Shown here piece after piece: positions 20,126 to 24,489 of a stretch of 34,484 nt of DNA. The stretch lies in NCBI GenBank assembly GCA_021817305.1, contig JAKAVL010000033.1:1-34484 (forward strand), read 5' to 3'. Each line of letters opens with the position of its first letter. The stretch's first letter is position 1. The position numbers were made by a program, and so were the translations under genes. The stretch is from Microcaldota archaeon. GTDB lineage: Archaea > Micrarchaeota > Micrarchaeia > Micrarchaeales > CABMGC01. Below the pieces are notes generated by a model, which was not told where the DNA came from, made no database searches, and was given only the letters and a program-made list of their open reading frames with translations.

Positions 20126-20599
20126 ATGCTGAACATAATCGTGGCGATGACCAGGGACAGGGTCATCGGCAGGGATGGAAAAATACCATGGCACCTGAAG
20201 GATGACATGGCCCTGTTCAAGAAGCTGACCGTCGGCAATACTGTCATAATGGGAAAGACGACGTGGCTGTCGCTCCCCGATAAGTTCAGGCCGCTGCCCG
20301 ATAGAACCAACATAGTTGTGAGCGGCACGCTTCCAGATCAGGATGGCGCAGTGGTCTGCAGAAGCGTAGACGAGGCGCTGAATGAAGCAAAAGGCAGCGA
20401 TGGGGAGGCGTTCTGCATAGGAGGCGCGCAGCTGTACAAGGCCATGCTGCCGCTCGCGGATGTGCTGCACGTTTCGTGGGTGAAGAAAGATTATGATGGC
20501 GACGCGCGGTTCCCTGATGTGGACTTCTCGAAGTGGAGGGAGGTTGAATCGCAGGATTTAGATGGATTTACCTATAGGAGGTATGCAAGGAGCGAATAA
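20126..20599 (+). CDS. folA: dihydrofolate reductase
   Basis: 157 residues, typical length. It has MLNIIVAMTRDRVIGRDGKIPWHLKDDMALFKK with the active-site acidic residue in KDDM, VIMGKTTWLSLP, and FCIGGAQLYKAMLP for NADPH binding. It regenerates tetrahydrofolate from the dihydrofolate made by ThyA. Its start lies one base after the thyA stop, so the two are co-transcribed. Confidence 0.95.
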   Translation: MLNIIVAMTRDRVIGRDGKIPWHLKDDMALFKKLTVGNTVIMGKTTWLSLPDKFRPLPDRTNIVVSGTLPDQDGAVVCRSVDEALNEAKGSDGEAFCIGGAQLYKAMLPLADVLHVSWVKKDYDGDARFPDVDFSKWREVESQDLDGFTYRRYARSE

Positions 20600-20623
20600 C
20601 GGTGCCTGGTTTCCTCGGAAGGG

Positions 20624-20695
20624 TATAAATAGGTTTTTAAAGCTTTTCCTAAAAATCGGGTAGATATATATACCATAATCGGCGCGTATATAGTG
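20624..20695 (+). promoter_or_regulatory. promoter region of the Tat-exported lytic enzyme gene
   Basis: TATAAATA at 20624-20631 is a near-ideal archaeal TATA box but lies about 95 bases before the ATG. Two further AT-rich elements (ATATATATACC near 20664 and GTATATAG near 20687) lie closer, the last at leaderless spacing. Which one is used, or whether a short RNA starts at the first, cannot be told. Confidence 0.45.
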
Positions 20696-20723
20696 AAGGC
20701 ATGGCTGTCTTCGTCTTGTTTGC

Positions 20724-21287
20724 ATGAACATAAATCATAAGGTATCCCGCAGGAGTTTTCTTGCGTCTGCTGCGGTACTCGCCGTCGGCATAGGCATGGG
20801 AGCTAACGCCAATGCGGATGCGGCGAAGGCGATATTCAGGACCGATGCGCAGGTTGCTGGAGCATCTAATCATATCGGAGCGGAGCAGTTCAAGTCCTTG
20901 AACAGGAGTTACGACAGCGCAACGCCTGAGGCGCGCTGGCACAGGAACAGCAGGCGCGGATGGATCAGCGCAGTGGCATTGAGGAACCAGCGGATTGCAG
21001 AATACATAATACGTGAGTCATATTCATACAGAGGGTGGGACACAGGAGAACAGTGGGAGGCTCTGAAGAAGCTCTGGATGAAGGAGTCGAGCTGGAATAA
21101 CAAGGCCGTGAACCATTCGAGCGGCGCCATAGGGATTCCGCAGCTGCTGCCGAGCCAGCACTCTGTACCGCAAGGCTACAGATGGGACGCGCGCGTTCAG
21201 ATAGAGTGGGGACTGCACTACATACTGCACAGGTACGGAAGCCCTGCTGCGGCGTGGGAGCACGAGCGCAGGCACAACTGGTACTAG
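20724..21287 (+). CDS. Tat-exported lytic transglycosylase-like (SLT/lysozyme-fold) protein
   Basis: 187 residues. The N-terminus is a twin-arginine signal: SRRSFLA (R9, R10) followed by a hydrophobic stretch and AxA-type ANANA. The mature C-terminal half (about 105-187) has LKKLWMKESSWNNKAVN with E121 at the expected catalytic position, then SSGAIGIPQLLPS, IEWGLHYILHRYGSP and a final AWEHERRHNWY. This pattern matches the short transglycosylase domain of actinobacterial secreted proteins. Such enzymes cleave peptidoglycan glycan strands, which archaea lack, so the target may be bacterial neighbours or another glycan. Horizontal transfer from a bacterium is inferred. Confidence 0.8.
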   Translation: MNINHKVSRRSFLASAAVLAVGIGMGANANADAAKAIFRTDAQVAGASNHIGAEQFKSLNRSYDSATPEARWHRNSRRGWISAVALRNQRIAEYIIRESYSYRGWDTGEQWEALKKLWMKESSWNNKAVNHSSGAIGIPQLLPSQHSVPQGYRWDARVQIEWGLHYILHRYGSPAAAWEHERRHNWY

Positions 21288-21330
21288 CAACTGATTTAAG
21301 GCTTGGCATCCATTAGTTAGCAGTGATCCG

Positions 21331-21999
21331 ATGCCTGATGCCGTTGTCGAGTCCTCTATGATAGTTTTCTTCGTCCTTAGTTCCGTCCTTGCCCTGCTGC
21401 TCACAAGGGCATACTTGAGGAAAGGTGAGAAGAGCTACATGTACTGGAGCATTGGGTTCTGGTTCTTCGCGCTCTCGGACCTTCTCGAGGTGCTGTTCGC
21501 CTTCGGCGCCTACAGCCAGGTCATCGCGCAGCTGTATCTGTTCGTCATTGCGTTCATGGTAATACCTCTAGCAATGGGCTCCCTCAGGCTGATAAAATCC
21601 GAGTTCGCGCGCCTTGTGTACTTCGGGTACTCATTCATCACTGCGCTCGTGCTGGCATACTTCACGTTCACCAGCACCATAGGCGACATGGTAAGCGGGG
21701 GGATGGTGAACGGCAACATACCGATGAACGTGCTAATCTCGTCATCGCTCATAACGTTTCCTGCAACGGTCATCATAATAGCCATAGCTGCCGTCACCCT
21801 CGTGCGCATGAGGAAGCTTAAGATGGCGTGGATAATACTCGGCATGCTCCTCTTCGCTTTCGGGGGCATGCTGTACATCGCCTCGATGCCTGTTGCCATA
21901 TACTATGTAGAGTTCTTCGGCCTGGTGGCGCTTTGGCTGGGATTCTTCGACTTCGCCACTATCGGGTCAGTGGGATCCAGAAGGAAGAGGAGGCGGTGA
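21331..21999 (+). CDS. polytopic membrane protein next to ctaB
   Basis: 222 residues with about seven hydrophobic helices and a basic C-terminal tail (SRRKRRR), so the C-terminus is probably cytoplasmic. No conserved motif or metal ligand is recognisable. The start ATG follows GTGATCCG. ctaB begins 4 bases after its stop and its ribosome site overlaps that stop, so the two genes are co-translated. A role in heme or respiratory membrane biology is possible by context only. Confidence 0.6.
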   Translation: MPDAVVESSMIVFFVLSSVLALLLTRAYLRKGEKSYMYWSIGFWFFALSDLLEVLFAFGAYSQVIAQLYLFVIAFMVIPLAMGSLRLIKSEFARLVYFGYSFITALVLAYFTFTSTIGDMVSGGMVNGNIPMNVLISSSLITFPATVIIIAIAAVTLVRMRKLKMAWIILGMLLFAFGGMLYIASMPVAIYYVEFFGLVALWLGFFDFATIGSVGSRRKRRR

Positions 22000-22003
22000 G
22001 TGT

Positions 22004-22852
22004 ATGTCGTCTGTCAGCGATTATCTGGGGCTCATGCAGTACAGGATAGTGGCTCTGCTGGTGCTGTCCTCAGTCGCGGGCTTCGTCATAGCCAACGGCC
22101 TGAACGGCGCGGGTGCACTGCGGGGCCTTGCGCTCGTAGTGCTTGCAGTAGCCGTAAGCGGAGCGGGCGCAGAACTTCTTAACAAGGTCCTTGAGATAGA
22201 CATAGACAGGAAGATGAAGCGGACAATGAACAGGGCGTCTGCGCGCGGGCGAATAAACAAGACCCACGGACTTGCGCATGGGATAATCCTTTCTGCTGCC
22301 GGAATCCTCCTCGGTTATGCGGTGAACGTCCTTACCGCGGCGATGGTATTCCTCGGGATATTCTTTTATATAGTAATTTACACCATCTGGTTGAAGAGGA
22401 GAAGCAGGTTCAGCATAATAATCGGGGGCCTCGCAGGCAGCTTCTGCGTCTGGGCAGGCGTTACTGCCGCTTCTGGAACGATTGCGCTGCCGGGATTCGT
22501 TCTCGGGCTCCTGGTGCTTCTCTGGATACCAGGGCACATATGGTCATTTGCAATGAGGTATAGGAAGGACTACATCAAGGCGGGGGTTCCAATGCTGACG
22601 GCAGTTGAGAGCAAGAAGACCGGTGCCAGAGTGATCTCGGCATTCAACATTGTCATGGCTGCTTTCTCCGTTTATCTTGCTGTTTTCCTTGGAGCTTATT
22701 ACGCTGTCATCATAGTGATACCGCTTGCGCTTTCGCTTTACCTCAGCTTCAAGACGATGGTCAACAGCTCTGCGGCGTGGACACTGTTCAAGTTCTCTTC
22801 TGTGTATCTGGCTTTCGCGTTCCTTGGAGTCATAGTCGCTGGCATTGCCTGA
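22004..22852 (+). CDS. ctaB: protoheme IX farnesyltransferase (heme O synthase, UbiA family)
   Basis: 282 residues with about eight to nine membrane helices. The first prenyl-diphosphate motif is NKVLEIDIDRKMKRTMNR (N60, D66/D68), followed by the CtaB-type YTIWLKRRSRFSIIIGGLAGSF loop and IPGHIWSFAMRYRKDYIKAGVPML, which is characteristic of heme O synthases rather than other UbiA enzymes. It adds a farnesyl tail to heme B for terminal oxidases. GGTGAG upstream of the ATG overlaps the previous stop. The neighbouring convergent gene is a large membrane protein that might hold such a heme. Confidence 0.87.
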   Translation: MSSVSDYLGLMQYRIVALLVLSSVAGFVIANGLNGAGALRGLALVVLAVAVSGAGAELLNKVLEIDIDRKMKRTMNRASARGRINKTHGLAHGIILSAAGILLGYAVNVLTAAMVFLGIFFYIVIYTIWLKRRSRFSIIIGGLAGSFCVWAGVTAASGTIALPGFVLGLLVLLWIPGHIWSFAMRYRKDYIKAGVPMLTAVESKKTGARVISAFNIVMAAFSVYLAVFLGAYYAVIIVIPLALSLYLSFKTMVNSSAAWTLFKFSSVYLAFAFLGVIVAGIA

Positions 22853-22869: not shown

Positions 22870-24489
22870 TTAATTTCCTTTGCGCCTGCGCGTACTTCGC
22901 GCAGTGCCCCTTGCAAGGTCGTGGCCGCTGCGCACTTTGAGCATCGCATAAATGACTATTCCAGACATCAGGAGGAGCCCGATTGAGAACACCAATCCCC
23001 AGGCCGTTGTGCCTGCCACGTTGGTTTGCGCGGCATTGAGCGTGCCTGGGTCTATGAAGGCATATATGAATCCGGTTATGAGCGCGAGGAGCGTGACTGC
23101 TATCCCCGACATAGCTATTTTCCTCCTCACATTCCTCTGTCCCTGGAAGAAATCGACTGCGAGAAATGCGAGCGCCACCATCGTTATGGCGAAGAGCGCG
23201 AAGTACTGCAGGTTGCCGAATACTACGTCTACTGGAGCGCCGCTGAGCGTCGCCTCGTTGAACTCGATGAAGAAGCCCTCGAGAGGCGTTGCCACGTATG
23301 CGATTATCCATGTCAGGAGTATCGAGAGGCGTATAGGGTCCTTCCATGCCGGCCTGTCCCTTATTCTAGTCAGCATCAGCGGCACGAGCATTATCATTGC
23401 GCCGAGGCTCGCGAGAAACATTGTTGCGTCGTCGCTTGCCATGCCGTTGGAGGCAGTGTATGACACCAGCTGCATCTGGCCTCCAGGATTGCTCGCGAAA
23501 AGCAGCGGAGGCGAAAAGCCGGCGAAGGCCTCGAACAGGAATACTGTGACCATTATCACGAGCCCGGTGATGCTCACCCACATGCCCAACTTGGCGAGTC
23601 CCCTGCTCCGACCCTTGAGTCCGAGGACGTTGAACCGTTTGGCAACAACTCCGACGACTCCGAGTATTATCGCCATGCCTATTACGTGCGAGTGCGAGCC
23701 TATGAGCGAGTCGAAGAACGCTGCTGCGCCTCCGAGCCACTGCATGTAGCCGTTTAGGAACGCAGGAGCCGCTATGAATACGTGGTATGGATTGATCCAC
23801 AATGCTATGAAGCCCATTATCCCTGCTATGAATGCGACAACCACGGCGGTTAGCACAAGCCAGTACGCAGAGTCCATCTTCCTGAAGTCTTTCCAGCCGG
23901 GCAGCTGCCTGCGCTTTGGAAACATGCCCATTGAGTTTTCGTAGGGATTGTACCTGCCCGAGATCTTTGCCGGAAGGAGGTACAGCTGCACTATCAGCGC
24001 TCCGCCCACGTCTGCAAGAAACAGCAGCGCGACGAACATTATTATGTCTGTTATCGGAGCAGTAGCTGCGTTGAACGCAGGCGATATGTAGAACAGCGCA
24101 GCGAGAGCGCCGAGCATGGTTGCTATGAGGGCCCTATATGCTATCGGGAAGTCTATGTTCGGTTCGTACTTGTCGAGTTCGAATGCGGCTATGACAAAAT
24201 AGACCAGCAGTGAAGCAATGCCTATGCCTATTGAGTGGAAGAACATGTCCGAGGGCCCGAAGATGAATGACGGCGGTATTGAGCCTCGTGCGCCCGGAAC
24301 AACGCCGAGGAGGAACCACAGCGCCGACATCACGCCCACTATCAGGAGCGTTATCCATACATAGGTGCGCAGGGCGTGCTTGTAGCTTTTGTGCGGCATG
24401 TTGTACCTGTTGGGCTTTACGCCTGTCTCACCGTAGAGGTCCCTGTAGCTCACCGCCACCATACTTTCCTTGCCTTTGCCACTTGCCAT
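22870..24489 (-). CDS. large polytopic membrane protein with membrane histidines
   Basis: 539 residues with roughly 12 to 14 hydrophobic helices and a short soluble N-terminus. Histidines sit within or beside membrane helices: SDMFFHSIG, INPYHVFIA and LIGSHSHVIGM. The HxH placement recalls heme- or metal-binding membrane proteins, but the hallmark sequences of heme-copper oxidase subunit I (WGHPEVY, the HH pair) are absent, so I do not call it an oxidase. The gene is convergent with ctaB, ending 17 bases from it. A heme-dependent respiratory role is inference. Confidence 0.6.
   Translation of the reverse strand: MASGKGKESMVAVSYRDLYGETGVKPNRYNMPHKSYKHALRTYVWITLLIVGVMSALWFLLGVVPGARGSIPPSFIFGPSDMFFHSIGIGIASLLVYFVIAAFELDKYEPNIDFPIAYRALIATMLGALAALFYISPAFNAATAPITDIIMFVALLFLADVGGALIVQLYLLPAKISGRYNPYENSMGMFPKRRQLPGWKDFRKMDSAYWLVLTAVVVAFIAGIMGFIALWINPYHVFIAAPAFLNGYMQWLGGAAAFFDSLIGSHSHVIGMAIILGVVGVVAKRFNVLGLKGRSRGLAKLGMWVSITGLVIMVTVFLFEAFAGFSPPLLFASNPGGQMQLVSYTASNGMASDDATMFLASLGAMIMLVPLMLTRIRDRPAWKDPIRLSILLTWIIAYVATPLEGFFIEFNEATLSGAPVDVVFGNLQYFALFAITMVALAFLAVDFFQGQRNVRRKIAMSGIAVTLLALITGFIYAFIDPGTLNAAQTNVAGTTAWGLVFSIGLLLMSGIVIYAMLKVRSGHDLARGTARSTRRRKGN

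What the first reader, a model, noticed from the sequence alone, without database searches (positions are those of the whole stretch)
20724..21287. Tat-exported peptidoglycan-lytic-type enzyme in an archaeon
The signal SRRSFLA and the domain around E121 (MKESSW, SSGAIGIPQLLPS, WGLHYILHRYGSP) match short actinobacterial transglycosylases. Archaea have no murein, so an exported folded lysozyme-like enzyme could attack bacteria, act in cell-cell contact or cut another glycan. It sits beside other bacterial-type genes (thyA-folA) with its own promoter.
Basis: partly seen in the sequence, partly recalled or inferred. Interest (0 to 1): 0.75.

Follow-up and report, generated by a model that had tools for sequence, protein, structure and literature searches.

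The report
Bacterial-type wall-cutting enzyme in archaeon

Summary
The gene is real. ORF 20724-21287 (+, 187 aa) ends in a full-length 'aggregation-promoting factor C-terminal' domain (NF052397, residues 110-187, E=1.4e-25), a lytic-transglycosylase (SLT/GH23-like) type common in Actinomycetota and their phages. Catalytic Glu121 and all 22 positions invariant in 76 aligned relatives are kept. The contig is archaeal. The closest congener lacks the gene: folA and the next gene lie about 60 bp apart there, 731 bp here. Among 395 archaeal genomes only one other (same order, different family) has the domain over its cut-off. The two form one clade (100/98) at dN/dS about 0.23, so the gene is maintained; its composition is native.

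The Tat claim fails. TatC is absent from all 7 genomes of the genus and solid in only 6 of 295 of the phylum; both Tat-signal models score below cut-off; the archaeal sister's signal lacks RR. Export by Sec is likelier (inferred).

Most likely use: cutting murein of nearby bacteria, for attack or food. The producer lacks murein polymerase (FtsW/RodA absent in 60 genomes), but substrate is untested. Archaeal peptidoglycan hydrolases that kill bacteria (Strock 2025) and DPANN murein transglycosylases are published, so this is a new member of a known kind.

The parts
20724..21287 (+). Gene of the 187-aa SLT/AggPromo-type enzyme (ATG to TAG)
   Evidence: dN/dS about 0.23 against its archaeal sister
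20724..20816 (+). N-terminal signal peptide, residues 1-31: RR motif VSRRSFLA, hydrophobic core, AxA-type cleavage ANA|DA
   Evidence: sequence; TAT_signal 17.9 bits below cut-off 22.7; TIGR01409 14.1 below 16.7; RR absent in sister L123; cleavage site by eye, inferred
20817..21050 (+). Linker and N-terminal helices, residues 32-109, no known binding domain; residues 41-85 missing in the archaeal sister
21051..21284 (+). AggPromo_Cterm / SLT catalytic domain, residues 110-187, ending in NWY
   Evidence: NF052397 1.4e-25, positions 1-80 of 80; confident domain model, Foldseek hits nearly all lytic transglycosylases
21084..21086 (+). Codon of Glu121, predicted catalytic acid (KESSWN)
   Evidence: invariant in A4 (76 sequences); aligned with the invariant Glu of ordinary SLT domains by hhalign
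20687..20693 (+). TATA-like promoter element TATATAG, 31-37 bases upstream of the ATG
   Evidence: sequence; by eye, not a statistical test
20600..21296 (.). Segment absent at the same place in congener G006 (gene plus its promoter region); edges approximate
20126..20599 (+). Left flank: folA (dihydrofolate reductase), 71% identical in G006
21331..21999 (+). Right flank: membrane protein (weak DUF7521 match), followed by heme o synthase; same order in G006

Best explanation
A bacterial (actinobacterial-type, perhaps through a phage) gene for a small secreted lytic transglycosylase entered this archaeal order long ago and is kept by selection. The protein is made from its own archaeal promoter, exported through the general Sec route with removal of the signal peptide, and released or held at the cell surface as a basic, Cys-free domain of about 9 kDa behind a short helical linker. 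Outside, Glu121 acts as the catalytic acid that breaks the MurNAc-GlcNAc bond of murein of neighbouring bacteria, which weakens their walls (attack) and frees material (feeding). Shown: gene, family, catalytic residue, archaeal context, absence of Tat, empty site in the nearest relative, purifying selection. Inferred: Sec export, activity, murein as substrate, benefit.
For: Full-length NF052397 match and SLT match over cut-off. Glu121 aligned with the Glu of ordinary SLT domains, hhalign E=1.9e-5. Domain model pLDDT 83.7, pTM 0.76; the first 30 PDB matches are all lytic transglycosylases or Rpf proteins of lysozyme fold. All 22 family-invariant positions kept in the window protein and its archaeal sister. 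dN 0.29 / dS 1.26 between the two. The archaeal pair is one clade, 100/98, among actinobacterial and phage sequences. Composition and codon use lie inside the range of neighbouring genes. No TatC, signal-peptidase-like gene present. No FtsW/RodA in 60 relatives including own, so no murein of its own to remodel. Published precedent: archaeal murein hydrolases kill bacteria (PMC12352652); DPANN murein transglycosylases proposed to act on bacteria (PMC8204110, PMC9723730).
Against: No activity data. No peptidoglycan-binding domain. Foldseek E-values are not significant on their own (best 0.17). The loop MASAGxDW of bacterial relatives is replaced by VPQGY in both archaeal proteins, which could change the substrate. 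Only 2 of 395 archaeal genomes have the domain, so it is not a core function. The signal peptide reads like Tat although the machinery is missing.
Confidence: 0.6

Rival explanations
1. The enzyme has been turned to another glycan, such as surface glycans of the archaeal host or biofilm polysaccharide, and serves cell-cell contact.
For: The only two archaeal copies share a changed loop in the region after the GIPQ motif (VPQGY instead of MASAGxDW), a long stem of 0.82 changes per site and no binding domain. A cellulase of lysozyme-like fold is among the weak structural matches (2xqo). Described Micrarchaeota have archaeal hosts (PMC5498576, PMC8975820).
Against: All family-invariant and catalytic positions are unchanged. 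No known enzyme of this family cuts another glycan (own knowledge). The host of this organism is unknown.
Confidence: 0.15
2. It is a passenger left by a phage or mobile element, with no present function in the archaeon.
For: Relatives are frequent in actinophages (268 phage records), and the gene is absent in congeners, with an empty site.
Against: dN/dS about 0.23 across two families of the order, intact frame and catalytic site in both, native codon use, no phage gene among the neighbours.
Confidence: 0.12
3. Export by Tat as a folded enzyme, with the translocase missed or supplied in another way.
For: VSRRSFLA fits the Tat consensus; Tat genes are reported for Mia14, another micrarchaeon (PMC5498576), and six genomes of this phylum have a clear TatC.
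Against: TatC missing in own genome, in all 6 congeners (three of them at least 90% complete) and in 40 of 40 sampled family genomes; signal models below cut-off; the sister lacks RR.
Confidence: 0.06
4. Assembly chimera or contamination by actinobacterial DNA.
For: The genome is a draft of 57 contigs; the gene is absent in all congeners.
Against: It lies inside a 34.5-kb archaeal contig with native GC and codon use, far from the GC of most actinobacteria; a 64-68% identical sister is in an independent archaeal assembly beside a KEOPS CGI-121 gene.
Confidence: 0.02

Closest known systems
Aggregation-promoting factor C-terminal domain proteins (NCBIfam NF052397) of Actinomycetota and lactobacilli, and phrog_12661 actinophage transglycosylases
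   Same: Whole 80-residue domain, catalytic Glu in KESxWN, SSGAxGIPQxLP, QIxWGLxYI, terminal WY; exported; 42-55% identity
   Different: No Cys pair (as in some bacterial members); VPQGY loop; much shorter protein than most, without LysM, G5 or CHAP partner; lies in an archaeon without murein
Sister protein in another archaeon of the same order, L123:1378-1824 (genome G264)
   Same: 64-68% identity over the domain, VPQGYxxD loop, no Cys pair in the domain core, same clade at 100/98
   Different: Signal peptide without twin arginine, no linker, a 5-residue insert after VPQGY, other place in the genome (by gatC and CGI-121 genes)
Archaeal peptidoglycan hydrolases Woldo and Danwoldo of Halogranum salarium (PMC12352652)
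   Same: Predicted murein-cutting enzyme with signal peptide in an archaeon, patchy distribution, bacterial origin
   Different: Those are M23 or glucosaminidase domains with two peptidoglycan-binding domains and killing shown by experiment; this one has a lone SLT-type domain and would fall outside that survey's modular definition
Large murein-like lytic transglycosylase proteins of Pacearchaeota and Woesearchaeota (PMC8204110, PMC9723730), and the ordinary SLT proteins of this phylum
   Same: SLT-superfamily enzyme in small-genome DPANN archaea, thought to act on bacteria
   Different: Those reach 3,000 aa or carry the classical GLMQ/AYNAG motifs; this is a 187-aa actinobacterial subtype

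Membership tests
AggPromo_Cterm domain (NF052397) | Model matched over its curated cut-off along its whole length | tested here: met
   89.5 bits against 40, model positions 1-80 of 80
AggPromo_Cterm domain (NF052397) | Highly conserved C-terminus ending in GWY or NWY | tested here: met
   Ends NWY; W and Y invariant in 76 aligned sequences; GWY ending described in PMC3017865
SLT / GH23-like lytic transglycosylase (PF01464) | Profile match over gathering score | tested here: met
   25.6 against 21.3 bits, over 40 residues only
SLT / GH23-like lytic transglycosylase (PF01464) | Catalytic Glu in the ES motif | tested here: met
   E121 aligned with the invariant Glu of ten ordinary SLT domains; invariant in A4
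SLT / GH23-like lytic transglycosylase (PF01464) | Lysozyme-like fold | tested here: inconclusive
   Confident domain model; 30 top PDB matches all lytic transglycosylases or Rpf, probability up to 0.90, TM up to 0.59, but no E-value below 0.001
SLT / GH23-like lytic transglycosylase (PF01464) | Cuts murein to 1,6-anhydro products | not testable with these tools
   Needs an enzyme assay
Tat-exported protein | Tat signal over the model cut-off | tested here: not met
   PF10518 17.9 under 22.7; TIGR01409 14.1 under 16.7, although SRRSFLA fits the motif by eye
Tat-exported protein | Tat translocase in the organism | tested here: not met
   No TatC in own genome, genus or 40 family genomes; 6 of 295 in the phylum; own genome is only 81% complete
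Modular archaeal peptidoglycan hydrolase (Strock 2025) | Catalytic plus cell-wall-binding domain | tested here: not met
   No binding domain in Pfam, NCBIfam or PHROGs
Large DPANN murein-like transglycosylase family (PMC8204110) | Proteins up to 3,000 aa of the Pace-/Woesearchaeota family | tested here: not met
   187 aa; different SLT subfamily

The most novel reading that the evidence does not exclude
A murein-cutting enzyme acquired from bacteria has been kept across an order of host-dependent archaea after its Tat route was lost, with the signal now read by Sec and the substrate loop remodelled (VPQGY) so that the enzyme works on an archaeal host's glycan at cell-cell contact rather than on murein.
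Probability: 0.1. Interest if true: 0.8.

Novelty: new member of a known kind. Interest (0 to 1): 0.45.

Why it matters
It adds a minimal, single-domain, actinobacterial-type wall-cutting enzyme to the short list of archaeal enzymes that can only act on someone else's cell wall. At 187 aa, Cys-free and with a clear E121Q control, it is an easy test case for whether host-dependent archaea attack or feed on bacteria, and the RR signal without Tat is a test of how such genes are refitted for export. Surveys that require a binding domain miss this type.

Tried and rejected
Single-protein scan of viral contigs found nothing. phmmer against PDB sequences found nothing, and the profile search gave only WD-40 repeat proteins, which are spurious repeat scores. 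The full-length structure model was poor outside the domain, so its PDB search was weak and the domain was modelled alone. A search for a closer bacterial donor in 397 genomes of one phylum (reached from an Actinomycetes genome) gave only ordinary members. The Aeriscardovia sequence L081 has a similar DARVQI stretch but groups with Bifidobacteriaceae, so it is read as convergence. The B. longum lysozyme paper (PMC8587964) concerns a GH25 enzyme, not this family. thyA-folA as a co-transferred island was rejected: folA is in most congeners and the enzyme gene in none. The phylum name Micrarchaeota is my inference; the tools give codes only.

Full report
Observation. It matches Pfam SLT over the gathering score and, much better, the NCBIfam domain NF052397 'aggregation-promoting factor C-terminal-like' along its whole length, E=1.4e-25. 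PHROGs gives actinophage transglycosylases.

Context. The contig is archaeal (uS2_euk_arch, RNA polymerase subunit D, MCM), part of an 840-kb draft genome, 81% complete. I take it for a micrarchaeon, but the tools name no phylum. Upstream is grpE-dnaK-dnaJ, thyA, folA; downstream a membrane protein and heme o synthase. A TATATAG box lies 31-37 bases before the ATG, which fits an archaeal promoter and a short leader. GC (0.566), GC3 (0.681) and codon score (-1.073) of the gene lie within the range of 21 other genes of the window, so the gene is not a recent arrival from a high-GC donor.

Empty site. The closest congener, G006 (FolA and heme o synthase both 71% identical), has the same gene order, but folA and the membrane-protein gene are separated by about 60 bp instead of 731 bp, and the enzyme gene is missing. 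The sequence just after the enzyme gene here (TTTAAGGCTTGGCAT) aligns with the G006 spacer (TTTAAGATTTGTCAT). No genome of the genus has the gene. Gain in this lineage is the simplest reading; loss in the others is not excluded.

Distribution. In 301 genomes of the phylum the subtype occurs only here and in G264, of the same order but another family; with NF052397 and 395 archaeal genomes, 94 or so of them outside the phylum, the same two are the only ones over the cut-off. The G264 copy (L123:1378-1824) lies beside gatC/gatA and a KEOPS CGI-121 gene, so it is archaeal too. The two proteins are 64% identical over the domain by one alignment and 67-68% by others, share VPQGY where bacterial relatives have MASAGxDW, and form a clade with 100/98 support on a long stem, inside a set that is otherwise actinobacterial, phage-borne or, in one row, Clostridium. 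The donor cannot be resolved with 99 columns. The best 80 of 591 relatives in the GTDB genomes are nearly all actinobacterial.

Selection. Between the two archaeal copies dN is 0.29 and dS 1.26, and all 22 positions invariant in the 76-sequence alignment (which includes the window protein) are the same in both; given 68 of 101 identical residues, chance gives 22 of 22 with probability 4e-5. The invariants were chosen from an alignment that contains the window protein but not the sister, so the sister's agreement is the informative half. The gene is maintained as an enzyme.

Fold and catalytic residue. The domain alone was modelled with pLDDT 83.7 and pTM 0.76. The PDB search gave no E-value under 0.001, but the first 30 matches are all lytic transglycosylases or Rpf proteins: Cj0843, MltE, MltF, gp144 of phiKZ, RpfB. 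hhalign of the subfamily against ordinary SLT domains of the same archaeal phylum aligns Glu121 with their invariant Glu, E=1.9e-5.

Export. The motif VSRRSFLA looks like a Tat signal, but both Tat models are below cut-off, no TatC is found in the own genome, the genus (7 genomes) or 40 genomes of the family, and only 6 of 295 genomes of the phylum have a clear one. Tat genes are reported for another micrarchaeon, Mia14 (PMC5498576), so the loss is lineage-specific. The sister's signal is similar in layout and without RR. A signal-peptidase-like protein is present (hits below the model's cut-off). I conclude that the protein is exported by Sec, if at all; this is inference.

Function. The organism has no murein polymerase of the FtsW/RodA type, nor have 59 relatives, so the enzyme has no murein of its own to remodel. 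The mature protein is basic (pI 9.7) and free of Cys. The most likely use is cutting murein of neighbouring bacteria. Whether the gain is killing, feeding or both cannot be told. The rival is another glycan, favoured only by the remodelled loop.

What is known. Strock et al. 2025 (PMC12352652) found modular peptidoglycan hydrolases in about 5% of archaeal genomes and showed that two from Halogranum kill a bacterium; they required a binding domain, which this protein lacks. Castelle et al. 2021 (PMC8204110) and Vigneron et al. 2022 (PMC9723730) report murein transglycosylases in Pace- and Woesearchaeota and propose attachment to, or predation on, bacteria. In this phylum ordinary SLT proteins occur in 57 of 295 genomes. 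The present gene is therefore a new member of a known kind: the first of the aggregation-promoting-factor type that I could find described in archaea, with the caution that the literature search was limited to open papers.

Noticed in passing
Phylum-wide; examples L002:1219-1866, L003:1189-1881, L010:745-1866: Ordinary SLT-domain (PF01464) proteins, some small and with Sec-type signal peptides, occur in 57 of 295 genomes of this archaeal phylum, a much wider pattern than the single gene of the finding.
   Followed up: partly
window 22004-22852 (+): Heme o synthase (TIGR01473, 232 bits) in a small-genome archaeon; found in only 3 of 36 relatives including own.
   Followed up: partly
window 22870-24489 (-): 539-aa polytopic membrane protein without any significant family match, next to heme o synthase; might be a divergent respiratory protein.
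   Followed up: no
Genomes G043, G102, G189, G255, G223, G274: TatC is scattered and rare in the phylum (6 of 295 over cut-off), which suggests repeated loss or gain of Tat.
   Followed up: no
L127:264-2161 (IMG/VR contig, 2,490 bases): Three tandem genes of the same enzyme subtype on one short contig, all without the Cys pair.
   Followed up: no
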